A DNA stretch of 64,000 nucleotides from Boswellia sacra (Eukaryota; Streptophyta; Magnoliopsida; Sapindales; Burseraceae). The stretch lies in the NCBI GenBank assembly GCA_013180625.2, contig SNVD02003467.1, positions 1 to 64,000 of the forward strand, written 5' to 3'. A program made the position numbers and the translations under genes. Every line of letters starts with the position of its first letter. Positions within the stretch are counted from its first letter, which is position 1. Below, one piece after another: positions 24,387 through 44,427 of the stretch. The notes below the pieces were generated by a model. That model saw only the letters and a program-made list of their open reading frames with translations, was not told the DNA's origin and did no database searches.

Positions 24387-27300
24387 CTCCCCCTTAATGC
24401 AGAATGTTTACAATGCCTAATAAATCTCTAAAATGTTGAAATTTCTCCGTAGGTACAGGCTTTGTAAACACATCAGCTAATTGATCATCAGTACTGCAGT
24501 ATGACACTTTAATGCTTCCTTTCTCCACCAATTCTTTGATGAAGTGATGTCGTATCTCAATGTGTCTTGTACGACTATGAAAAACTGAATTTTTGTCATT
24601 GCAATTGTGGACTGATTATCACAAAAGATAATTGTTGGCTTATTTTGAGGCTGCATCATGTCTTCTAAAATTCTCCTGAGCCAAATTGCTTGACATGCTG
24701 CTGAAGTAGCTGCCATATACTCTGCTTCAGAGGATGAAAGTGCTGTAGATGATTGCTTTTTAGAACTCCAGGAAATAACACCTGAGCCAAGATTTAAAAC
24801 ATAGCCTGTGGTGCTTCTACGATCATCAATTGAACCTGCCCAGTCACTATCAGAAAACCCACATAACTTGAAGTTAGCTACATTAGTGTACTGAATACCG
24901 TAAAAGATAGTCCCTTTTAAATATCTCAGAATCTTCTTGACTGCCCCATAATGAATTTTGCTTGGACTCTGCATAAACCTTGACAAAAGACATGTAGCTT
25001 GCATAATATCAGGCTGGCTATTTGTCAGATACAATAAACTCCCAATTATACTCCGATAAATATGACCATCAATTTTTTCTTCCCCATCATTCAAACTGAA
25101 TTTTTGATTGGAATTTATAGGAGTCTTTACTGGATTACAATCTTTCAATTTAAATTTCTCAAGAAGATTATTTACATATTTTTCTTGAGAAAGAAAAATT
25201 TCAGCATCACATTGTTTCACCTCAAGTCCAAGAAAATAATTCATCAAGCCAAGATCAGTCATCTCAAATTCATTAACCATAATAGACTTGAATTCATCCA
25301 TCAAAGCAATACTATTACCAGTATAAATAAGATCATCAACATAGAGACAAACAATAAGTACCTCAGTTGTGCCTCTTGTTTTGACATATAAGGTGGGCTC
25401 ATTTTCACTTCTCTTGTACCCATTTTGCTTGAAATGACCATTGATTCGATCATACCAAGCCCTTGGGGCTTGTTTCAAGCCATAAAGTACCTTTTTTAAC
25501 CGATAAACTTTGCTTTCTTCACCAGGAATTTCATAACCTTGGGGCTATTGTACATAAACCTCCTCATCCAAAAAACCATTCAGAAATGCAGACTTGGCAT
25601 CAAACTGAAAGACACTCCATTTCATGTGAGCTGCTATAGCTAAAATAGTTCTAATAGTGTCAAATCTAGCTACTGGTGCGAAAGTTTCATCGAAATCAAT
25701 ACCTTCACGCTGCATGTAGCCCTTGGCAACTAGCCTTGCTTTGAATTTTTGAATTGAACCATCAGATCTATATTTTGTCTTATAGATCCATTTCAGCCCC
25801 ACAACTTCCTTGTCATCAGGTAAGTCGACAAGCTCCCATGTTTTATTTTTCTCCAATGCCTTGATTTCTTCATCCATTGCTGCACACCATTCTTTATGTT
25901 TCACAGCTTCTTGGAAAATACTGGGCTCAGTAACTTGAGTGAACTGACACATTTAAGATTGCTCATATATTTCTTCCAAAGCCTTCATCTTTATTGGAGG
26001 TGTTTCTGGAGATGTAGTACTTGGTGAAGTGAGTGGGCTGCCTCTCGGTGTAGACGGATTTGAGCCTTCTCCAATCTGAATGTCATGCTCCACCTCATTC
26101 TAAAAAATTACACCTGGAAATTGTTGTAATTCTTCCTAATTCCAAGCATTTCTCTCATCAAACACAACATCACGACTAATAATTAGTTGTTTTGTGAGAG
26201 GATTAAAAACTCTATATCCTTTTGTCTCATTACTATATCCCACAAATATGCATTTCATGCTATTGTCATCAAGTTTATGTCGCTTTTGAGAAGGTACATA
26301 AACATACACAATACAACCAAAAACCATAAAAAGTGTTACCTTCGACTTCCAACCATTCCAAGCTTCAAAAGGAGTTTGGTTTCGTAATGTAGATGTGGGA
26401 CTTCTATTAAGGATATAGGTTGTAGTGTGGACAGCTTCTGCTCAAAATTTCTTTGGAAGATCCTTTGCTTTGAGCATGCTTTTAGCCATCTCTACAAGAC
26501 TTCTATTTTTCCTCTCTGCTACTCCATTTTGTTGGGGCGTATAGCTAGCTGTCAATTGTCTTCCAATGCCAAATTCTTCACAAAATTTGTCAAACTCATT
26601 GGAAACAAACTCACCACCATGATCAGTTCTCAAGATCTTCAAGAAGAATCCGCTTTGCTTTTCAACATGATTCTTGAACTTCTTGAAAATAGGCAAAGCA
26701 TCTTATTTTTCTTTAGCAAAATACACCCACGTCATCCTGCTAAAATCATCAACAAAAACAACAAAATATAAGTTGTTATTAAGAGAAGAAACTCGCATGG
26801 GCCCGCAAAGGTCTGCATGGATTAGCTCAATCGGCTTCTTAGCTCTTCTTGCTGTTCCTTTTGGAAAGGAATTTCTGTGCTGCTTTTCAAACACACAACT
26901 TTCACATTTGTCGACAATATGCTCAATTTTGCTAGGCAAACCCACAACTAAATTTTGTTGAGACAAAGTTTCCAAGCTTCCGAAATTCAAATGCCCATAT
27001 CTAAGATGCCACAGCCAACTCTCCTTTAATAATGAAGCCTTGCAAGCAAGTATGTCACAATCAAGGGTAAGAGGAAAAATTTTGTTCTTGGCCATAGGAA
27101 CTTTCAACAACAAATTATTTTTAGCCTTGTCACTGAACACAAAACATGTCAAATCTTCAAAAACAAGTGAAAAACCTTCCAGTAAAAATTGCCCCACACT
27201 TAACAAATTTGTATCTAACTCAGGAACAAATAAAACATTTTTTATTTCACCTGATTTTGCTTTCATAGTACCTCTACCATGAGCTTCTCTAATTGTTCCA

Positions 27301-28049
27301 TCACCCATCTTAACTTGAATATTTTCTGACTTATCCAAGCTAATAAAGGACTCCAAATTTGCTGACATATGGTTGCTGCAACCACTATCAATATACCAAA
27401 TATCATGAGATAATTCATTAGCAGAGTAGCAAGCAAAAAATAAACTTTCAGATTCTTCCTTTTCTTTTTTCTCTTCAGCAAATTTTGCTTGCTGTTGTTT
27501 AAGCCGACAATATCGTTCTATATGCCCATATCTTTTGCAATAATAACATTGAGGCTTTCGATTACTGCTCTCACCTTTGCTACCATTCTCATTTTGTTGT
27601 TGATTGTTACCTGATTGGCCAAAATTTTTTCCTCCTTTCTTATCACGAGAATAGTTGTTTCCACGCCCTTTCTTATTGTTCCCATTGTTGGTATTGCTTG
27701 GCTTTTCCTTGGAAATCTGCAAATTAGTATGAAAAGCATTTTCCACAACTTGCTCATCATATATTTTGAACCTATCTTCATGAGATAAAAGCGAACCAAG
27801 TAACTCATCAATTGTTAGTACACTTAAATCCTTATATTCTTCTATTGCAGCCACAATCTGATCATATTTAAAAGGCAAGCTTCTCAAAATTTTTTCAACA
27901 ACTTTCTCATCAGATAAATTCTCACCAAATTTTCTGATTTGATTCACAATTTCCATCAAAGAGCAAAAATAATCATGAATTGACTCACCATCCTTCATCA
28001 GTGAAGTTTCAAATTTTCTACGAAGAGTTTGAAGCTTTACAGTGAGCAC
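24387..28049 (-). pseudogene. Copia-2 gag 3' part and pol (several stops and a frameshift)
   Basis: From 28049 the frame gives the end of gag and the CCHC knuckle CYYCKRYGHIERYC. A protease-type segment with WYIDSGCSNHMS follows, then GAG-pre-integrase, integrase, RT with YVDDLIY and RNase H. Stops lie at 26703-26705, 26442-26444, 26136-26138, 25953-25955 and 25545-25547. A one-base loss near 24590 shifts the RNase H end out of frame. The TAG at 25545-25547 is at the same codon as the TAG at 1705-1707 in Copia-1. The other stops are private. Confidence 0.93.
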
Positions 28050-28061
28050 CTTTGCATTACC

Positions 28062-28361
28062 CTAATACGCTTTCTGTAATGCATCCCATGCCTCCTTTGC
28101 ATTTGTCGCTGCAGAAATACGTGGAAAGATGGAATCAACAACAGCTTGTTGAATGACAAACAAGGCTTTGGCATCTTTCTTCTGAATATCTTTGAGATTC
28201 TCTGTAGAAACTCCTTCATCTGAGTAGCCATTCTTCACCAGCTCCCATAAATCTTGAGAGATAAAAAAGGTCTTCATCTTTGTGCTCCAAACATCATACC
28301 CACTGCCTTGAAACAGAGGAATTGTTGGTTGTGTAGAAACCAAACTAGCATTGTTTGCCAT
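28062..28361 (-). pseudogene. Copia-2 gag, N-terminal part
   Basis: From the Met at 28361 (MANNASLVSTQ), just after the primer site, the frame reads a UBN2-type copia gag start (IPLFQGSGYDVWSTKMKTFF ... AKEAWDALQKAY). It ends at TAG 28062-28064, and gag continues in the same frame downstream. Confidence 0.88.
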
Positions 28362-28376
28362 TTTGAAAACAACTTG

Positions 28377-28388
28377 GCTCTGATACCA
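28377..28388 (-). promoter_or_regulatory. Primer-binding site of Copia-2 (initiator tRNA-Met)
   Basis: TGGTATCAGAGC on -, two bases inside the 5' LTR. Confidence 0.92.
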
Positions 28389-28390
28389 GA

Positions 28391-28837
28391 TGTTGATTTG
28401 AATGAGACTTGGCAAACAAAATCAAAGACTCAACACTCAAAAGTTGAGCAAACACAATTGGAACTTCTCTCAATACTGATTAGAGTACGAGAGGTAAGCA
28501 CAAAATAAAAGACTATATTGTGAAGAAAATTCTACTTGAATTATTGAAATGGAAATAAGCCTTTATATAGGCATACAAAGATTAACATGACTCCTAAACA
28601 TTAGTGCCACTAAGACACCAACTAAACCCATAACCACCACTACTCATGTCTTCTTAAATATTAGTACCACTAAGCACTATCTCAACCCATGACCACCACT
28701 ACTCATGTCTTCCTAAAAAACACTCCACTAAATGCTATAATTTAGGACTCAATAAGTAACACGGACTAACCACTAGTTACATAAAAATAGGAATAAATGA
28801 CATAAAAATATTAATATATTCTGCATTAACTTTAACA
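28391..28837 (-). repeat. 5' LTR of Copia-2 (447 bp)
   Basis: It has both 60-bp repeat units and the TATA region, and it is very close in sequence to the Copia-1 LTR (2867-3315). Confidence 0.94.
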
Positions 28838-30377: not shown

Positions 30378-30478
30378 GTTAGTACTTGCCAGCTTTAATC
30401 TCGCTCTTTGAGAATGCACATGTAGTTAGCATGACTTGCACTTTCTTCTGTTTATAATCCATCATCTTAATTTACCAG

Positions 30479-30777
30479 GCTGGACCTTCAAGGGAGATTC
30501 CTATCTTTCAAAGCTTGGTCAGCTAAAGTGCTTTCTGAGCCTCATCCTTCGCCGGATTGAGACACAAGAAATCGAGAGGACAAGGGCTGGAGGAACGGAT
30601 GCTGATGATGGCATGTGCTGCATCTGTTATGCAAGTGAAGCAGATGCGGAGTTTGTGCCTTGTTCGCATAGGTCATGTTATGGATGCATAAGCAGACATC
30701 TTCTAAATTGCGTGAGATGTTTCTTCTGCAATGCAATAGTCGTGGGGGTTGTCAAGATTGGTGAGAAGACAGCTTAA
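30479..30777 (+). pseudogene. RKP: RKP-like terminal exon with RING finger
   Basis: Acceptor ttaccag. The phase from exon 6 and the downstream reading frame differ, which implies loss of one base near 30490-30500. From there the frame reads GDSYLSKLGQLKCFLS, a Glu/Arg linker and a C-terminal RING with CCICYASEAD, PCSHRSCYGC and CVRCFFC. It ends at TAA 30775-30777. All RING cysteines and the histidine visible in the motif are retained, so this domain decayed less than the rest. Confidence 0.87.
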
Positions 30778-33253: not shown

Positions 33254-34666
33254 TGACACATCCGAAAAAGGATTATCTCTAAAGTATAAGAGTGTCGAAG
33301 TAATAAACTTGTTAATACCGGGGTCGATCCACGATTTTAGCGCTACAAACTATAAGTAAGCAAATATGATGTGGATGATTCAAAGGGATGACAAGATAAT
33401 ATCAACAAAGATGAGTAAAGAACAAATTCTTAAACAATAAATAAGAATAACACAAGAGAAATTAAAACAATAATAATGAGAGCTAAGGTTAGGGGATCCG
33501 CCCTTGATATTTAGAATAAGGATAAACAACCCATTTTAGTTATATGAATTATATTTTGTTTTGTTACCAATATTTATACTACTATTTGTAAATGGGTTCA
33601 AATATCCAATGTGTCAATCTCCATATGTCGACAATAAATCAAAGTTCATAACTAGATTTGTGTCGGTAAAGAAAAACTATACGACATCTAGAAAGGATCC
33701 AAGCATTTGATGTGTCAAAGATTGTCTACAATGGATCAAGACCTCCACTTTACGAATGGTGTCAAGATTGATTAAGAAAGTAAATATAAATAATCTAAAA
33801 TAAACAACATAAGATTATGATAATTAAGCACATATCAAGGGTTAGAGAATCCTTACTTTTATATTAAGAGTTTCACCCTTTCACCTTAGTAAGAGAGAAA
33901 TTAGAAAGACATTATAAGAGAAAGAAAACAAATTACAAGAAAAAGGAAATTAAGAAAACAAATTACAAGAAAAAGGAAATTCATTAATAACATTAACACA
34001 CTAGAGAGAAAAACACAATAATAAGAGATACACAATACAAGATTCTAGCTAAGGCCAAGATGACCCCAATGGGTCACAAGGTACCTTTATTTATAGATAC
34101 ATTCAGGGGTAAACTTGTTAAATCATAAAGGAATAATTGTCAAATATTAGATGCACCAACTTTGACAATTAGGGTAATTAGGTGAACCGATTTTGACCAC
34201 CGATTTTGACCTTAAATTATTATGAATTTTAATCACATGTCTCCATAAAAGTCGTAGATATTTCTTTCAGCTTTCTAGAACATCTTGATTCATACGATTT
34301 GGATACGTATTCTGAGATATATGGTCAAAATACTGAGGCATGGTCAGGCTAGGCCGAAAGTGCAGATGGGTTCACTTCAAGCCCATTTTTGGTCCACTAA
34401 GAGCCCGAATTTGATGATGCTTGTGAAATACAATCTTGTAGATAATTTATTTAACTTTTCAAAACATTAAGATTTGCACCATTCTGATCTATAAATAGAG
34501 AGTTATGTCCATTTTACCAAACCTGTAATAAAATCAAAATTAAGAGGAAGTTAATTCCAAAGATGCAAAGGCTACAAATATGCTTAAGTTGAGAAATTTA
34601 ATGACACTATTAATGCAATATGATGAACTAAGCTCTTATTAAACATACATATTTAAGTGTTCATCA
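33254..34666 (-). repeat. 3' LTR of Gypsy-A (1413 bp)
   Basis: It runs from TGACACATCC to TTCATCA and is collinear with 43041-44427. On the element's strand, a TATA-like box (ctataaataaagg) lies at about 34085-34098. The polypurine tract adjoins at 34667-34676 (caccccccaa on +). Confidence 0.93.
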
Positions 34667-34676
34667 CACCCCCCAA

Positions 34677-35982: not shown

Positions 35983-36625
35983 TTACAAATGGAGATTTAG
36001 ATCCAATTTGCACTTTTTGTTTTGCCCTCCTGACCAATTAATTTGAATACTAGCTGGGTCAGGTTTATACTCAACTGCTTGTAATTTGTCAAGTAACTCA
36101 CTAGTAGAAGTGGCAGAAACAAGGATTCGTCTCACTGAATGAGAGATAAAATTTTGTTTAATAGCTGCATCAACAAAACTTATTAAAGGATCAAAGAAAT
36201 TGTTAACATTCAACAAACCTATGGGTTTTTGATGGAGGTTTAGTTGGGCCCAAGAGGCAATTTGAAAATTTTTTTTAATAGTACCAAAGCCATCTGGTAA
36301 AGCAATAAAGGCATTTGAATTGATGAGCATATGCGTCATGCGTTCATGCATAGAGGAGACCTGTAACTCCGTCCCAACCGTTTTTCCAACAATGCTTTCT
36401 ACAGCCAAAGCTTTGGGAATAACTTCTAAAACTTGCTACCTCCTACATGTGCAGCTCTTGACACACAACCCATTAACCTGAGGCTACCTCCCCCATAAAC
36501 CACATGAATCTTTCTTTCAGCCAGTAGTCTACCAAGATAATTTGCTGCCTCGACAAACTCTTAACTTTTATCTGGTCGAGATCCACAGAATACACATATC
36601 TTTTGGATTCGACGTTTTGAAGTTC
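35983..36625 (-). pseudogene. LOG-like: LONELY GUY (LOG)-like gene, intronless, carried by Gypsy-A
   Basis: LOG enzymes release active cytokinin from its riboside 5'-monophosphate. On - the sequence reads ICVFCGSRPDKS, EAANYLGRLLAERKIH, VVYGGGS (about 36485-36503), VIPKALAVES, HERMTHMLINSNAFIALP, then P-D-G-F-G-T-I-K-K where the catalytic motif is PGGxGTxxE (about 36270-36300). After that come IASWAQLNLHQKPIGLLNV, SHSVRRILVSAT and a Lys/Arg-rich tail before the stop at 35983-35985. All of this is contiguous, whereas plant LOG genes have several introns, so it probably came from a spliced mRNA. Lesions are TAA at 36561-36563, a frameshift near 36436, and loss of a Gly and the Glu of the active-site motif. 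Confidence 0.87.
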
Positions 36626-37039
36626 CCTCCACATTTATGCAACTCTCTAACTATTTGTGAAGAAGAGAACAAGAAATGTGGTATTTATGGAGTGCAAAAA
36701 GGTATGCTAATGATGACATCTAAATAGGTAGCTTGGTTGCTTTTTGAAAAATATGACAATAATGCATAGAAATTCAAAAAAAATGATGAAATAAGACACC
36801 ATAAGTAAAAAAAAAGATACAAATTCAAAAATGACAGCTATGAGGCATTAAAATTCAAAAATGATGGCACGCATGCATATGTACAGGTAATTGTGACTGT
36901 GGCTCACATCTTTCTCTGATTTTACGTCCAGAAACGACTTAATCACCTTCTATGAGTTAGGGATATGCTTCCCATCCAGTTTTCTTATAAACTGACAAAC
37001 ATGGTTGTTTTGAGTCAGATTCCCAAGACTATAGCGTTC

Positions 37040-37498
37040 CTACTCATCTCGGAATTGTGTCCACAAGTTAAAAATTTCACGCTGCACAAGTCCACAACAA
37101 TTCGTCTCAAGAGTCATTCGGATATCATCCAAAGACTCCCTACTCAGTCCATTCTTGATGAACTGTAGTTTATCCTCTCGATTATTAGACAAATATCCCA
37201 AGGAGCGACAACGTTGGTTACAAGTCCATCTTGCACATTTGGGACAAGCTTGTAACCTTTTCGCTCTTCGCTTTTTGGCGTAAGAGCTTTTTCCCATACC
37301 TGGCATGTGAGAAACAAGATTATCTGAAAATTCATAAGAAAACCGAACATTGGCTTCAATTAACCATCTTACTTCAACAGACATACCCTTACGCATCAAC
37401 ATCCTTAGTCTTTCTACGCGAGCTTTGTAAATTTTAAGCAAATCATTTGGAGGAAGAGAGGGAAAATGTTTGTGCAGATTTGAGAGAATGGTGTCCAT
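37040..37498 (-). CDS. Accessory ORF resembling flexivirus nucleic-acid-binding (zinc-finger) proteins
   Basis: An intact ORF of about 152 codons from MDTILSNLHKHFP (a longer frame starts at 37543). The first 65 residues are helical and rich in Arg, Lys and Leu (LKIYKARVERLRMLM). A basic block follows (GKSSYAKKRRAKRL), immediately followed by a cysteine cluster C-P-K-C, T-C and R-C (spacing C-x2-C-x4-C-x3-C), then DKLQFIKNGLS. A basic stretch joined to a small zinc finger and a short hydrophobic-basic segment is the layout of the 3'-terminal nucleic-acid-binding proteins of vitiviruses, carlaviruses and trichoviruses (Pfam Viral_NABP). The ORF starts about 190 bp after pol, on the same strand. 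It is not part of gag, pol or a known envelope-like ORF. The family call is from pattern memory. Confidence 0.6.
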   Translation of the reverse strand: MDTILSNLHKHFPSLPPNDLLKIYKARVERLRMLMRKGMSVEVRWLIEANVRFSYEFSDNLVSHMPGMGKSSYAKKRRAKRLQACPKCARWTCNQRCRSLGYLSNNREDKLQFIKNGLSRESLDDIRMTLETNCCGLVQREIFNLWTQFRDE

Positions 37499-37684
37499 GT
37501 GAAAATGCGAGAAAAGAAAATAAAATGAATGCAAGGTAAGCAACAGTTTTTAGGGAACTGAAAAACCGACTTTAAAAGTCACGGAGTACTGTATCCGCCA
37601 CTTGATCGGGAAAAATCAATCCTTAAAAAGGATCGATTAAAGAAATAGACTCTTCATTTTGGTCAAAATTTTCAAAGAATGGTT

Positions 37685-38756
37685 TTAACTATTGTCCATT
37701 AACTTTAAACACATTACCATTCTTTGGGTTCTCAATTTCAACTGCTCCATGAAGGAAAACATTTTTAATAATGAAAGGCTAAGTCCAACGAGACCGAAGT
37801 TTACCAGGAAACAAATGTAATCTTGAATCATACAAAAGAACTTTTTGTGAAGGTTCAAAAGATTTTCTAACAATGGATTTGTTATAAAAAACCTTCATTT
37901 TTTCTTTGTAAATTTTAGAATTGTCATAAACCTCATTCCTGATTTCTTCAAGTTCACTCAGTTAGAGTTTACGTAACTTGCAAGCATCATTCAAATTTGT
38001 GTTAAATATTTTAGTGGCCCAATAAGCTTTATGCTCAATTTCCACAAGCAAATGACAAGGTTTTCCATAAACTAATCTATAACGAGATATTCCTAATGAT
38101 GTTTTGAAAGCAGTTCGGTAAGTCCAAAGTGCATCATCAAGTCTTAAAGACCAATCTCTACAATTTAGGTTAACCGTTTTTTCTAAGATTTGTTTTATCT
38201 CCCTATTAGCTAATTCAACTTGTCCACTTGTTTGTGGGTGATAAGGTGTAAAAATTTTATGGGTTATTCCATATTTCTTTATTAAAGTTTTAAATGGTTT
38301 GTTACAAAAATGTGTACCCCCATCACTAATAAAGGTTCGAGGAATTCCAAATCCAGACAAGATATTCTCTTTCAAGAATTCGATAATTGTTTTGTGATCA
38401 TTGTTTCGACATGGAATTGCCTCGATCCATTTTGAAACATAGTCTACTGCAACAAGGATGTACACAAAACCAAATTACAGTAGAAAAGGTCCCATAAAAT
38501 CAATACCTCAACAGTCAAAGATTTCAACAACAAGAATATGATTCAAAGGCATCATGTTTCGTTTTGAAATGGATCCCAATTTTTGACAATTTTCACAAGT
38601 TTTGCAAAATCCACATTGTAAGATCTTAGCAGCTATTTTTCTAGATAATGTTCTCCACATGCTTCAGAATGACAAAAGTTAATGATACTATTTACCTCAT
38701 TGTCGGGTATGCATCTTCTTATTATTTGGTCAGGATAATATTTGAACAGATATGGG
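37685..38756 (-). pseudogene. Gypsy-A integrase
   Basis: The core at 38465-37962 reads [26 protein letters not shown] and [16 protein letters not shown], giving the Asp, Asp and Glu of the catalytic triad. The C-terminal part at about 37860-37685 reads [17 protein letters not shown] and ends with GAVEIENPKNGNVFKVNGQ. The N-terminal zinc-finger half (38756-38470) is broken by stops and frame changes, and there is a further stop near 37960. Confidence 0.9.
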
Positions 38757-40400
38757 TCATCCCAATAAAAATTTTTCACCTCGGTTAAAAATTTCTGATG
38801 AATTTTTATTTTTCGTTGCTACTGTACCTTGGTTTGCTAACATTGTAAATTTTCTTACAACAGGAAAAGAATCATTGATAGGTGAAGTTTCAATTAATGT
38901 CTCTGTCGTTAGTCTTGAAAGATGATCTACAACGACATTTTCGGCTCCTTTCTTATCCTTTATTATGTTGTTGAATTCTTGGAGCAATAAGATCCACCGT
39001 ATAAATCTAGGTTTTGCATCCTGTTTAGATATTAAATATCTCACAGCTACATGGTCAGTGTAAACAACTATTGGAGAACCAATTAAATAAAATCTAAATT
39101 TGTCCAATGCAAATACTACTGTAAGTGGTTCTTTTTCAGTTGTTGTGTAATTCATTTGGGTATCATTTAAAGTCCTACTTGCATAGTATATCACATAAGG
39201 CTTACCTTCTTTTCTTTGTCCTAAGACAGCACCAATGGTGTAGTCACTTGCATCACACTTCAATTCAAAAGGCAAGGACCAATCAGGAGATTGCATAATT
39301 GAAACAGTTGTTAAAAGTCCAATTAATTTATCAAAGGCATTTTGACATTCTTGAGTCCATTCAAAAGATGTGTCTTTTATTAAGAGGTTACAAAGAGGTT
39401 TAGATAGAGCATTGAAATTTATTATGAACCTCCTATAAAATCCAGCATGCCCTAAGAATGAATGAACCTCTTTGACTGTTTTTGGTGGAGGCAAATGGGA
39501 AATTAATTTCACTTTTGCTTTGTCCACTTCAATTCCCTTAGAAGACACCACATGACCTAAGACAATTCCCGAAGTGACCATATAATGACATTTTTTCCAA
39601 TTTAAAATAAGACCTTTTTCTATACACCTTTTCAGGACTTTTTCTAAGTTTTCAAGACAATTATCAAAAGAGTTTCCAAAGACAATTAAATCATCCATAA
39701 AAACTTCTAAACAATGCTTAACCATATTACTGAAAATGCTTAACATGCATCTTTGAAAAGTGGCTAGGGCATTACAAAGTCCAAAAGGCATTCTCCTAAA
39801 TGCAAAAGTGCCGAAGGGGCACGTGAATGTGGTCTTTTCTTGGTTTTCGAGTGCAATGAGAATTTGATAATAGCCTAAGTATCCATCAAGAAAGCAGTAG
39901 TAGAGGTGTCCTACTACTCTTTCAAGAATTTGGTCAATGAAAGGTAAGGGAAAATGGTCTTTTCTAGTGACAGCATTTAATTTCTATAATCAATGCACAT
40001 CCTCCAACTAGATGAGACTTGAGTTGGCAATGATTTCCCCTTTTCATTTTTAACTACTGTAATACCAGATTTTTTAGGTACTACTTGTGTAGGGCATACC
40101 CACTTGCTATCAGAAATGGGTAGATAATTTCCACATCAAGTAGTTTAAGAACTTCAGCCTTAATAACTTCTTTCATATGTGCATTCAATCTTCTTTGAGG
40201 TTGTTGGGATGTTTTGGCATTTTCCTCTAAATGTCTCTATTTGTGCAAATTAAAAGGTTAATGCCTTTTATGTCTTTTAAAGTCCATCCGATTGCATTTT
40301 TATGCCTTTTAAGCACTTTTATCAACTTACCTTATTGCTCGCTTGTGAGGGATGACAAAATTACTACCGGATATGTTTAATTCTCCCTAAGATATGCATA
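38757..40400 (-). pseudogene. Gypsy-A reverse transcriptase and RNase H
   Basis: The N-terminal RT part (about 40130-39800) is in broken frames (WVCPTQVVPKKSG, CIDYRKLNAVT on the - strand). The main frame 39791-38757 begins MPFGLCNALATFQRCM, has the catalytic FMDD in EVFMDDLIVFG, and runs into RNase H (ELKCDASDYTIGAVLGQ ... YTDHVAVRYL ... VVDHLSRL). It is typical of Athila/Tat RT. Confidence 0.9.
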
Positions 40401-40622: not shown

Positions 40623-41111
40623 TTAGATGTGATCTTCCACAATAAATTCAATCATGTTGGCCTCATCAATTTCATCTTCTTCTTCATGTGGTTGTTTGCA
40701 CATATTAAAAACGTTAAGTTTCAATGTCATGTTTCCAAATGATAGCTTCATGACTCCATTCTTGCAATTAATCAAAGCATTAGAGGTAGCTAGAAACGAA
40801 CGCCCTAAAATAACAGGAATTGAATTGCATACTTCCACTGGTTGTGTGTCCAAAACGATAAAATTCACTGGATAGATGAATTTATTAACTTGAACTAACA
40901 CATCTTCTACTACTCCTCTTGGTACTTTGATTGATCTTTCAGCAAGCAAAAGAGTCACAGAAGTTGGTTTTAACTCACCTAGATTGAGTTTTTGAAAAAC
41001 CGAATATGGAAGCAAATTCACACTAGCACCAAGATCAAGTAAAGCTTGTTCAATTTTATGGTCTCCAATAACACATGAAATTGTAGGACAACCTGGATCC
41101 TTATATTTCAT
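40623..41111 (-). pseudogene. Gypsy-A aspartic protease region
   Basis: It reads KYKDPGCPTISCVIGDHKI, then the active-site box LLDLGASVNLLPYSVF (D-L-G-A-S where many retroelements have D-T/S-G-A), then LLLAERSIKVPRGVVEDVLV and PVILGRSFLATSNALI. The DLGAS variant is usual in this lineage. It follows gag after a frameshift near 41112. Confidence 0.88.
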
Positions 41112-41115
41112 TGTA

Positions 41116-42847
41116 TTATTGTTTTGAAGAATAGCATACTTGCTCAGCTAGAAAGGCTTTCTTTTTCACATTCAATTTCCTTTTAACAGTGCATAAGTCT
41201 TTCAAAAATTTTGCATAAGAAGGTACCTGTTTGATCACATCAAGCAAGGGAATATTGACCTTTACCTGTTTGAAAATTTCAAAGATTTCAGAATTGTCAG
41301 TTGGCTTCTTTTGTGTGGCTAATGCTTGAGGTAATGGAGGAATAGATGAGGATTTGGTTTCTTCTTTGCTAAGTGTTGGTTTGGCAACCTCTTCTTGCCC
41401 TTTAGAGATTGATTCTTCTTCTTTCTCACAAGGGTCAGGAATGTGTTTTTCAACAACCTTACCATTGCGAAGGGTCATGACTGACTTGGCTTGGTCAAAA
41501 TAATGGTTACTTGAACTCCTTGCATTTGCGTTAGATTGATCTTTGGGGTTTTGCAATGTTTGAGAATGAAATTTTTCCTTCTTTTGGATGCTAAATTTAG
41601 ATGCAAATTTTGCAAGAGTTTCTGATAAATTTGCTAATGTTTGAGCAGTTTGACTATTGAAAGTCTCTTGCTTTGTAATGAATGAATGCAATGTCTCTTC
41701 AAAGTCATTCCTAGGAGGAGGAGCATATGCATGATCATGAGAATTTTAAAAATTTTGTCGTGTTTGAAAAGGGACTTGTGAAGATTGTGTATGATTATCA
41801 TTTTTCCAACTAAAATTTGGATGATTTCTCCAACCAGGATTGTAGGTTTGTGAATATAGATTGTGATTTGGCCTTTTAAAAGTGTTCAAGGTATTGGCTT
41901 CTTCATGGAGACATTCCCTAAAGGCAGGCAAAGTTGGATAATCATCAGTAGAATAGTCATTGTCATTACAAATGTTACAGACATTTTCTTGAATAGAATT
42001 CAATTGACCACTCTTTTTAATCTCTAAAGCCTCGACTTTTCTAGCTAGGGATGCATATTTGGCTTGAAGGTCATGGTCTTCCCTAAGGTTGTAAATGCCT
42101 CTGTTGGATGTCAAGGTTGGGGTCTTGCCTGGTACCTCATAGGTGCCAGCAGTGTCCCAATTTTGTGCCTTTTCTGCCAAGGAATCTAGGAAGTCAATTG
42201 CTTCCTTAGGGTCTTTTTCTCCAAATTCTCTATTACACATTAATTCTACTAGTTGCCTATCTTGAGGTGTTAACCCTTCATAGAAGTGTGCAACTATTCT
42301 TCAAGTTTCAAAACTATGGTGAGGATGGTTATTAAGTACTTCCTTATACCTATCCTAATATTGGTAAAGGGTTTCCCCTTGTTTTTTTAGAGAAATCAGA
42401 AATTTGTCTTTTAAGAGAATTTGTTCTATGGGTAGGAAAATTTTTTTTCAAAAATTTTTATTTCATCTCATCCCATGAACTGATAGAATTCGACATCAAA
42501 TTTTGTAGCCATGTTCTAGCTTTATCTTTTAAAGAAAAAGGAAAAAGCTTTAATCTAATGGTGTTTATGCTACAATTTGGGTCAGTGTAGGAGTTACATA
42601 CCTCTTCAAAGATTTTCAAGTGCGAATATGGGTTCTCCATATCAAGGCCATGAAAGGTGGGTAGAAGTCGAACAAAACTTGGTTTGAAATTGAAATGGAT
42701 TGAATCTGGAGGAGAAACTACACAAGATGAAGTACTAGTCCTTACCAGATTCATGTAATCTCTGAGGGTTCTTGGTTGGTTTTGATCATTTTGTTGAGAA
42801 CGATTGTCCCCTTCATCCGTGAACCTTTCCACTTGATTGTCGACCAT
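41116..42847 (-). pseudogene. Gypsy-A gag
   Basis: Three frames on -. 42847-42458 is the N-terminal gag (FKPSFVRLLPTFHGLDMENP ... LKDKARTWLQNL). 42240-41746 reads GEKDPKEAIDFLDSLAEKA with a cysteine cluster in VCNICNDNDY. 41691-41116 has a coiled-coil-like Gln/Thr-rich region and VPSYAKFLKDLCTVKRKLN just before protease. Stops and frame changes separate the three parts. Confidence 0.88.
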
Positions 42848-43018: not shown

Positions 43019-43034
43019 CCCGGCAACGGCGCCA
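43019..43034 (-). promoter_or_regulatory. Primer-binding site of Gypsy-A (tRNA-Asp)
   Basis: The - strand reads TGGCGCCGTTGCCGGG six bases inside the 5' LTR. This is the tRNA-Asp-complementary site typical of Athila/Tat elements. Confidence 0.9.
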
Positions 43035-43040
43035 AAAACT

Positions 43041-44427
43041 TGACACATCCGAAAAAGGATTATCTCCCAAGTATAGGAGTGTCGAAGTAATAAACCTGGT
43101 AAGACCGAGATCGATCCACGAGGAAGGAGATTTTAGCGCTACAAACTATAAGTAAGCAAATATGATGTGGATGATTTAAAGGGTTGGCAAGATAATATCA
43201 ACAAATATGAATAAAGAATAAGTTCTTAAACAATAAATGAGAATAACACAAGAGAAATTAACATAATGATAATGAGAGCTAAGGTTAGGGGATCCGCCCT
43301 TGATATTTCGAATAAGGATAAACAACCCATTTTAGTTATATGAATTATATTTGCTTTGTTACCAATATTTATACCACTACTTGTAAATGGGTTCAAGCAT
43401 CTAATATGCCAATCTCCATATGTTGACAACAAATCAAGGTTCCTAACTAGATTCGTGTTGGTAAGGAAAAACTATACGACATCTAGAAAGGATCCAAGCG
43501 TTTGATGTGCTAAGGATTGTCTACAATGGATCAAGACCTCCACTTTACGAGTGGTGTCAAGATTGATTAAGAAAGTAAATATAAATCATATAAAATAAAC
43601 AACATAAGATTATGATAATTAAGCACATATGAAAGGTTAGAGAATCCTTTCTCTCATATCAAGGGTTTCACCCTTTCACCTTAGCAAGAGAGAAATTAGA
43701 AGAACATTATAAGAGAAAGAAAACAAATTGCAAGAAAAAGGAAATTCATTAATAACATTAACACACGAGAGAAAAACACAATAGTAAGAGATACACAATA
43801 CAAGATCCCAGCTAAGGCCAAGATGCCTCAATGGGTCACAAGGCACCTCTATTTATAGATATATTCAGGGGCAAACTTATCAAATTATAAAAGAATAATT
43901 GTCAAATATTAGATGCACCAACTTTGACAATTGGGGTAATTAGGTGAACCGACTTTGACCACCGATTTTGACCTTGAATTATTGTGAATTTTAATCACAT
44001 GTCTGCATGAAAGTCATAGATATTTCTCTCAGATTTCTAGAACATCTTGATTCATATGATTTGGATACGTATTCTAAGAGATATGGTCAAAATACTGAGG
44101 TATGGTCCGGTTGGGCCAAAACTGCAGATGGGTTCACTTCAAGCCCATTTGTGGTCCACTAAGAGCCCGAATTTGATGATGCTTACGAATACAATCTTGT
44201 AGATAATTTAATTATCTTTCCAAAACATTAAGATATGCACCATTTTGATCTATAAATAGAGAGTTATGTCCATTTTACCGAACCTGTAACAAAACCAAAA
44301 TTAAGAGGAAGTTAATTCCAAAGATGCAACGGCTACAAATATGCTTAAGTTGAGGAATTTAATGACACTATTAATGTAATATGATGAACTAAGCTCTTAT
44401 TAAACATACATATTTAAGTATTCATCA
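43041..44427 (-). repeat. 5' LTR of Gypsy-A (1387 bp)
   Basis: This is the partner of 33254-34666. It has many substitutions and several short indels relative to it. Confidence 0.93.

What the first reader, a model, noticed from the sequence alone, without database searches (positions are those of the whole stretch)
37040..37498. Intact virus-like nucleic-acid-binding ORF inside a plant Gypsy retrotransposon
Between integrase and the 3' LTR of Gypsy-A an unbroken ORF of about 152 codons encodes a basic block (GKSSYAKKRRAKRL) joined to a cysteine cluster and then DKLQFIKNG. This layout is known from the 3'-terminal nucleic-acid-binding proteins of vitiviruses, carlaviruses and trichoviruses, some of which suppress RNA silencing. 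It is unbroken while gag, pol and the neighbouring LOG-like gene are full of lesions, which hints at later constraint or late acquisition. A retrotransposon that took up an RNA-virus gene for RNA binding or silencing defence would be new to me.
Basis: partly seen in the sequence, partly recalled or inferred. Interest (0 to 1): 0.88.

Follow-up and report, generated by a model that had tools for sequence, protein, structure and literature searches.

The report
Virus-type RNA-binding gene in plant retrotransposons
A very common plant jumping gene carries, next to its integrase, a small conserved gene whose protein matches a family of nucleic-acid-binding proteins of plant RNA viruses, some of which are reported to block RNA silencing, so it likely helps the element evade its host, although the copy first spotted is itself damaged.

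Summary
The ORF is real (minus strand) and the viral match holds. It passes Pfam's cut-offs for Carla_C4 and Viral_NABP. A cousin copy in the same genome reaches 47.7 bits, E 2.5e-12, over 106 residues and just passes with its basic block masked; the window ORF masked that way does not.

It is not a late oddity. It is one copy of a 182-codon accessory gene of a high-copy Gypsy family. Of 20 loci read, integrase lies directly upstream in 19, and a LOG (cytokinin-activating) gene and an LTR lie downstream in 20. A 29-nt pol-NABP junction block occurs 2308 times in the host genome, control 0. Named relatives are rosids and Orobanchaceae.

Amino-acid changes shared between copies are depleted relative to singletons (odds ratio 0.32, p = 0.0004, 43 copies; wrong frames not significant): purifying selection while the element moved.

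Likely role (inferred): nucleic-acid binding that protects the element from RNA silencing. Viral origin is likely; its direction is untested.

The parts
43041..44427 (-). 5' LTR
   Evidence: LTR pair, 90.1% identical over 1422 alignment columns with gaps; K2P 0.0756 over 1378 aligned bases
43019..43034 (-). primer binding site TGGCGCCGTTGCCGGG, tRNA-Asp type
   Evidence: sequence next to the 5' LTR; tRNA-Asp assignment recalled; tRNA-Asp use by plant non-chromovirus Gypsy elements seen in a passage of PMC6317226
41116..42300 (-). gag, broken; its CCHC knuckle is altered in this copy
   Evidence: named gag by position and knuckle, no significant Pfam match
40623..41147 (-). aspartic protease region
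   Evidence: Pfam Asp_protease_2 1.9e-6
38757..39983 (-). reverse transcriptase and RNase H
   Evidence: Pfam RVT_1 3e-20, RT_RNaseH 6.3e-34
37629..38600 (-). integrase and C-terminal tail, with in-frame stops
   Evidence: Pfam rve 2.4e-14; tblastn with the L001 pol protein
37578..37606 (-). conserved non-coding block between pol and NABP
   Evidence: 2308 matches at up to 3 mismatches in the host genome, control 0; a similar stretch in L001 by eye; coordinates
37558..37567 (-). putative 3' splice site, T-rich tract plus CAG, 59 nt before the ATG
   Evidence: pattern present within 150 nt upstream in 35 of 44 sequences; coordinates; function inferred
36953..37498 (-). NABP accessory gene (182-codon family frame); this copy ends early at 37040-37042
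37208..37276 (-). basic block KKRRAKR and C-x2-C-x4-C-x3-C cluster (residues 75-97)
   Evidence: all four Cys kept in 43 of 43 copies
35986..36617 (-). LOG-like gene, no intron seen, broken in this copy
   Evidence: two pieces match plant LOG-family structure 2a33 (1.8e-32 and 1.4e-13); position
34667..34676 (-). polypurine tract next to the 3' LTR
   Evidence: TTGGGGGGTG
33254..34666 (-). 3' LTR

Best explanation
The ORF is a truncated copy of a 182-codon accessory gene that a high-copy plant Gypsy retrotransposon family carries between integrase and a LOG gene; its protein matches the Viral_NABP family of plant RNA viruses, and it likely binds nucleic acid and is predicted to shield the element from RNA silencing. 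Shown here: the position, the high copy number, the family match and purifying selection across copies. Inferred: a KKRRAKR block plus a four-cysteine (predicted zinc-binding) cluster grips RNA or small RNAs; the protein is made from a downstream ATG, perhaps after splicing at the T-rich CAG 59 nt upstream; and the gene was taken up long ago from a vitivirus- or carlavirus-like RNA. The neighbouring LOG gene, a copy of a cytokinin-activating enzyme in which no intron was seen, suggests a two-gene cassette acting on the host cell.
For: Family match: Carla_C4 28.9 bits (cut-off 20.9) and Viral_NABP 26.5 bits (cut-off 23) for the window ORF; 82 of 95 relatives match each family at E <= 0.001; L093 scores 47.7 bits over model 118-225 of 227, and 24.0 bits with the basic block masked. 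Of the shuffles submitted (5 full and 1 core shuffle of the window ORF; 5 of L093) none hit either family; three gave unrelated matches below their cut-offs. In the BFVD structure search rows 2, 3, 4 and 6 of 14 are plant-virus proteins named RNA silencing suppressor or nucleic-acid binding protein, each weak (E 0.89-4.0). Layout parallels vitivirus p10 as printed in PMC9104223 (passages): arginine-rich motif, cysteine-histidine finger, and in GVA a ...DRLRFVKEG stretch, against ...DKIQFIKDG here.

Element gene: INT directly upstream in 19 of 20 and LOG plus LTR downstream in 20 of 20 loci; same INT-NABP order in L001; by eye, cotton and Rhamnella gene models join NABP to LOG and INT pieces.

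Selection: shared versus singleton N/S 25/33 versus 101/42, OR 0.32, p = 0.0004; other frames p = 0.14 and 0.22; window versus L001 dN/dS 0.22, bootstrap 0.12-0.35.

Silencing link: carlavirus and vitivirus relatives reported as RNA silencing suppressors (PMC10141686, PMC8839810, PMC9104223 passages).
Against: No test of binding or silencing was possible. In the window ORF the Pfam match vanishes when the basic block is masked, and with the Cys cluster masked only a sub-threshold Carla_C4 match remains; in L093 masking the Cys cluster drops the match below the cut-off and masking both removes it. Finger spacing differs from the carlavirus C-x2-C-x12-C-x4-C and from the vitivirus finger, whose paper prints C-X-C-X4-H-X4-C and says the ...VKEG stretch is not conserved across vitiviruses. 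No viral sequence could be fetched, so there is no tree and no direction. BFVD and PDB fold matches are all above E 0.4 and the model is low-confidence (pLDDT 70, pTM 0.32). Against L001 the NABP dN/dS (0.22) is higher than integrase's (0.12). Copies were chosen from the best-scoring 150, which favours conserved ones. L001 scores below the Carla_C4 cut-off.
Confidence: 0.45

Rival explanations
1. The protein works inside the element's own cycle as a nucleocapsid-like chaperone or packaging factor that binds element RNA, not as a silencing suppressor.
For: Its C-x2-C-x4-C-x3-C cluster resembles a zinc knuckle. In 12 of 13 readable gag matches outside the window (12 loci, L054 twice) the gag knuckle C-x2-C-x4-H-x4-C is complete but rich in acidic residues, so basic RNA binding could be supplied separately.
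Against: Gag keeps its own knuckle; the viral relatives are described as silencing suppressors and pathogenicity factors in the passages read.
Confidence: 0.22
2. It is a nuclear DNA-binding regulator which, together with LOG, pushes cells into division so that new insertions reach the germ line.
For: [quoted passage not shown] the original Plant Cell paper was not held). LOG is adjacent in 43 of 43 host-genome copies examined, and PGGFGT[LF]EE is kept in 27 of 42 LOG alignments.
Against: L001 has NABP without LOG in the 1 kb downstream, so the two are separable; nuclear entry and DNA binding untested.
Confidence: 0.15
3. The gene arose or long resided in plant retroelements and RNA viruses took it from there.
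For: The element family is diverse: 760 and 703 protein clusters at E <= 10 in two profile searches, best 120 listed each; named hits in rosids and Orobanchaceae.
Against: Nothing tested directly; virus-to-element is preferred only because the domain is known mainly from several virus genera (recalled).
Confidence: 0.13
4. The resemblance to viral NABPs is convergence: a basic patch next to cysteines in an unrelated accessory protein, perhaps from a host gene.
For: The score leans on the basic block and Cys cluster; no significant fold match.
Against: With the basic block masked L093 still passes the curated cut-off over 105 residues, narrowly; shuffles did not hit either family; no other Pfam or NCBIfam family and no PDB chain matched significantly.
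Confidence: 0.08

Closest known systems
Vitivirus ORF5 / GVA p10 (Viral_NABP, PF05515)
   Same: Arginine-rich block (KRRRARR), then a Cys-rich finger, then in GVA a D-R-L-x-F-V-K-E-G stretch like D-K-I-x-F-I-K-D-G here (PMC9104223 passages); passes the Pfam cut-off
   Different: Paper prints the finger as C-X-C-X4-H-X4-C against C-x2-C-x4-C-x3-C here, and says the third stretch is not shared by other vitiviruses; 74 residues precede the basic block here, while p10 carries it in its N-terminal portion; here it sits in an integrated retrotransposon
Carlavirus CRP (Carla_C4, PF01623)
   Same: Basic quartet six residues before the first Cys, as in CiCV1 RRRR47-50/C57 (PMC10141686 passage); 82 of 95 members match at E <= 0.001
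   Different: Finger spacing C-x2-C-x12-C-x4-C not shared; L001 falls just under the cut-off (19.8 versus 20.9)
Sense extra ORFs (env-like) of plant Gypsy elements, and the LOG/YgdH ORF of Citrus and Populus elements
   Same: [quoted passage not shown] LOG in the element (PMC7264820 part 1 of 3, PMC9289625 section 12)
   Different: Neither text as read names an NABP domain; PMC6317226 predicted only extra ORFs of 250 codons or more (passages), which would miss a 182-codon gene
AlkB (2-ODD) ORF in Phalaenopsis Gypsy elements
   Same: Retrotransposon with an added RNA-acting protein whose domain also occurs in Betaflexiviridae (PMC9289625 abstract and passages)
   Different: Closest to human and Arabidopsis demethylases and found only in Phalaenopsis; here the relatives are viral and several plant genera carry it
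Endogenous betaflexivirus replicase-like sequence of cucumber (CsFRLS1)
   Same: Betaflexivirus-related sequence in a plant nuclear genome (PMC3136472 passages)
   Different: A replicase fossil, not a gene carried and kept by a retrotransposon family

Membership tests
Viral_NABP protein family (Pfam PF05515, by profile) | HMM score above the curated cut-off (23 bits) | tested here: met
   26.5 bits window ORF; 33.8 P0002; 34.2 L001 and 47.7 L093; 150 of 150 scored host-genome places over cut-off, 0 of 14 control genomes, whose identity was not shown
Viral_NABP protein family (Pfam PF05515, by profile) | Match does not rest on the basic block alone | tested here: inconclusive
   L093 with basic block masked: 24.0 bits over 42-146; window ORF masked the same way: no match
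Viral_NABP protein family (Pfam PF05515, by profile) | Nucleic-acid binding, silencing suppression | not testable with these tools
   Needs bench work
NABP gene of a flexivirus genome | 3'-terminal gene of an RNA virus genome | tested here: not met
   Integrated LTR retrotransposon, LTR downstream in 20 of 20 loci; not filed here
Carlavirus CRP (Carla_C4, PF01623) | HMM score above 20.9 bits | tested here: met
   28.9 bits window ORF, 28.5 P0002, 23.8 L093; L001 below at 19.8
Carlavirus CRP (Carla_C4, PF01623) | Finger C-x2-C-x12-C-x4-C (PMC10141686, PMC8839810 passages) | tested here: not met
   C-x2-C-x4-C-x3-C, Cys at 85, 88, 93, 97; not filed here
Athila-type Ty3/gypsy element | gag-PR-RT-RH-INT order, LTRs, PBS, PPT | tested here: met
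Athila-type Ty3/gypsy element | Placement in the Athila clade of an RT tree | not tested
   No reference RT set on hand; the Athila label rests on the tRNA-Asp-type PBS and on the LOG ORF being reported for Athila-like elements (recalled)
Athila-type Ty3/gypsy element | Sense extra ORF between pol and 3' LTR | tested here: met

The most novel reading that the evidence does not exclude
A widespread plant retrotransposon lineage captured an RNA-virus silencing suppressor and, in some branches, a host cytokinin-activating enzyme, and has kept both under selection as a host-manipulation cassette: one gene to blunt RNA silencing, one to drive cell division. Retrotransposons thus carry virus-style counter-defence genes, and the plant arms race with transposons can be read from them.
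Probability: 0.35. Interest if true: 0.88.

Novelty: new variant of a known kind. Interest (0 to 1): 0.72.

Why it matters
Plant transposons are held down by RNA silencing, and how they escape it is largely open (general knowledge). A conserved, high-copy gene whose relatives in RNA viruses are reported to suppress silencing gives a concrete, testable candidate for a transposon counter-defence. If the homology holds it also shows gene flow between positive-strand RNA viruses and LTR retrotransposons, in one direction or the other. The gene is short enough to be missed by a survey that predicts only extra ORFs of 250 codons or more, and cotton and poplar are among the named hits.

Tried and rejected
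Late acquisition or special preservation of this copy: rejected. Standard pol or gag ORF: rejected, no retroelement domain in the ORF. Host plant protein: nothing significant in Pfam, NCBIfam or PDB (PDB best E 0.59). Carlavirus CRP in the strict sense: rejected on finger spacing.

Scans of viral contigs with the protein, the alignment, a pol protein and three motif patterns gave no relative; the 41 pattern loci were checked with the family profiles, best 10.0 bits. Phages: no match. First structure model poor (pLDDT 59). The PF01623 search of the host genome did not complete.

Left out of counts: LOG and INT used 42 of 43 copies each, one stretch being too short; INT singletons are inflated by frameshifted copies. 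Variants seen in exactly two copies were left out at threshold 3; thresholds 2 and 4 gave OR 0.33 and 0.42. A 60-codon RNase H piece had saturated synonymous sites and gave no dN/dS. Of six shuffles made each time, five were submitted.

Full report
What was checked. The window ORF lies on the minus strand, 37498-37040, 152 codons from an ATG, with the basic block, the cysteine cluster and DKLQFIKNG as described. Pfam puts it over the curated cut-off of two viral families, Carla_C4 (28.9 bits, E 1.1e-6) and Viral_NABP (26.5 bits, E 7.4e-6), and finds no retroelement domain in it.

The element. Two LTRs (33254-34666 and 43041-44427, 90.1% identical with gaps, K2P 0.0756, about 2.9 million years at the recalled rate of 1.3e-8) frame gag, protease, RT-RNase H, integrase, the NABP ORF and a LOG-like gene, all on the minus strand. 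A tRNA-Asp-type primer site follows the 5' LTR and a G-rich tract precedes the 3' LTR. The flanks show no target-site duplication (GAGTTC against ACATCG). The Athila assignment rests on the primer site and on the reported LOG ORF; an RT tree was not made.

The ORF is a truncated family member. Full-length database relatives are about 182 codons long. In the window the frame runs on after its stop with conserved residues, so this copy ends at codon 153. Gag-pol needs at least 16 lesions in 1553 codons, which predicts about 1.6 lesions in 152 codons; an open stretch of that length is not evidence of special constraint.

The gene belongs to the element family. In the host genome (638.6 Mb, 7431 contigs, unnamed) 150 of 150 scored places matched at 88-100% identity, out of 12168 first-look candidates. 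I chose 20 of these places and read 7-10 kb each: integrase lies directly upstream in 19 of 20 (L070 shows none), and LOG and an LTR lie downstream in 20 of 20. A 29-nt block between pol and NABP occurs 2308 times at up to 3 mismatches, with 0 for the pattern read backwards; it marks the junction, not an intact gene. L001, evidently a plant contig misfiled in a bacterial MAG, has the same integrase-NABP order, an intact 182-codon gene and no LOG in the 1 kb downstream. By eye, annotated proteins of cotton (P0103, NABP joined to a LOG end) and Rhamnella (P0065, integrase end joined to NABP) show the same neighbours. Named relatives: Acer, Xanthoceras, Populus, Rhamnella, Parasponia, Gossypium, Orobanche, Striga. 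A tree of 21 named proteins plus the window groups Populus, Orobanche, Striga, Parasponia and Rhamnella each by genus, with weakly supported deep nodes.

Selection. Between the window and L001, dN/dS is 0.22 for NABP (178 codons, bootstrap 0.12-0.35) and 0.12 for integrase (319 codons, 0.06-0.18); reading the NABP alignment in the other frames gives 0.70 and 1.44. Among 43 copies of the host genome (window included), changes seen in three or more copies (mostly made while the element was moving) were compared with changes seen once (mostly decay after insertion). NABP: 25 N and 33 S against 101 N and 42 S, odds ratio 0.32, p = 0.0004; without CpG changes 0.25, p = 0.0001. Integrase 0.54 (p = 0.001) and LOG 0.46 (p = 0.002). 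In the wrong frames the NABP ratio is 1.93 (p = 0.14) and 0.58 (p = 0.22). All four cysteines are kept in 43 of 43 copies, and 25 of 43 are open over 180 codons. The sample comes from the best-scoring 150 places and so favours conserved copies; both classes of change come from the same sample.

How strong is the viral link. Of 95 relatives, 82 match each viral family at E <= 0.001; of the 21 in A1, 21 (Viral_NABP) and 20 (Carla_C4) match at E <= 0.01. Searching the host genome with Viral_NABP gave 150 of 150 scored places over the cut-off and 0 of 14 control genomes (not named to me); the four places from that list that I read belong to another subfamily. One of these, L093, scores 47.7 bits (E 2.5e-12) over residues 41-146 against model 118-225 of 227. 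Masking its basic block leaves 24.0 bits, just over the cut-off of 23; masking the cysteines leaves 16.5, below it; masking both leaves nothing; 5 of 5 submitted shuffles do not hit either viral family. For the window ORF itself, masking the basic block removes the match and masking the cysteines leaves a sub-threshold Carla_C4 match of 16.8 bits. Foldseek against BFVD found nothing at E <= 0.001; rows 2, 3, 4 and 6 of 14 (E 0.89, 0.89, 1.5, 4.0) are proteins of Chrysanthemum virus B, Grapevine Kizil Sapak virus, Helleborus mosaic virus and Garlic virus A named RNA silencing suppressor or nucleic-acid binding protein; row 1 has no name and row 5 is a circovirus-like protein. The model is of low confidence and the PDB gave one match at E 7.7. 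The published vitivirus p10 layout (PMC9104223, passages) is close, though it prints the finger as C-X-C-X4-H-X4-C and says that the third stretch is not conserved across vitiviruses; the carlavirus finger spacing (PMC10141686, PMC8839810, passages) does not match. I therefore count the protein as a member of the Viral_NABP protein family by profile, nearest in layout to vitivirus p10, and not as a carlavirus CRP or a viral gene.

How it likely works (inferred). The conserved basic block and cysteine cluster would bind nucleic acid. Relatives in carlaviruses and vitiviruses are reported to suppress RNA silencing, and plant retrotransposons are silenced by small RNAs, so protection of element RNA is my first choice. 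A T-rich CAG 51-62 nt before the ATG in 35 of 44 sequences could be a splice acceptor for a separate message. Rivals are a nucleocapsid-like role, prompted by the acidic gag knuckle, and a nuclear regulator acting with LOG. LOG keeps PGGFGT[LF]EE in 27 of 42 alignments, but not in the window copy.

Second subfamily. L094 carries integrase then NABP. In L091-L093 no integrase match precedes NABP within the 1.4 kb read; by eye, protease-like or RT-start-like frames lie upstream, but Pfam found no domain in the two such frames that I submitted, from L093 and L091. Deletion derivatives that kept NABP while losing pol are thus only a suspicion. NABP is open over its full length in L093; in L091 and L092 the match is split, and in L094 the frame ends early. 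Only four such stretches were read.

What is known. LOG (YgdH) in Gypsy elements of Citrus and Populus is published (PMC9289625, section 12 read, which credits an earlier paper that I did not read). That section names no NABP domain; its supplement was not seen. PMC6317226 predicted only extra ORFs of at least 250 codons (passages). PMC7264820 (part 1 of 3 read) describes sense extra ORFs as env-like. PMC3136472 (passages) reports an endogenous betaflexivirus replicase-like sequence in cucumber. Searches for the domain names or for their pairing with retrotransposons listed no paper that, by title, start of abstract or the passages read, describes this gene, within an open-licence library only. 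Automatic labels do exist: one JGI protein and one Parasponia protein are named Viral nucleic acid binding.

Noticed in passing
35986-36617 (-): LOG-like cytokinin-activating enzyme gene in the same element, no intron seen over the span matched to 2a33; found in 43 of 43 host-genome copies examined, PGGFGT[LF]EE kept in 27 of 42 alignments, degenerate in the window.
   Followed up: partly
37578-37606 (-): A non-coding block between pol and NABP looks conserved even in L001 and occurs 2308 times in the genome at up to 3 mismatches; several copies show a short inverted repeat (ACGG..CCGT) in it, and it may be regulatory.
   Followed up: partly
L091, L092, L093: No integrase match in the 1.4 kb before NABP; possibly elements that lost much of pol yet kept NABP, intact in L093. 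Pfam found no domain in two upstream frames submitted.
   Followed up: partly
gag, loci L051-L068: The gag CCHC knuckle (CNICDDNDHSTDDC in several copies) is strikingly acidic for a nucleocapsid finger.
   Followed up: no
L001: An evidently plant retrotransposon contig is filed in a Candidatus Nomurabacteria MAG (DAIEQH010000041.1), apparently a contamination.
   Followed up: no
26703-28421 (-): Copia-type gag and integrase frames (by eye, not searched) about 5 kb from the Gypsy element.
   Followed up: no
30430-30777 (+): A RING-finger-like exon (MCCICYASEADAEFVPCSHRSCYGCISRHL, by eye), perhaps the end of a host E3 ligase gene.
   Followed up: no
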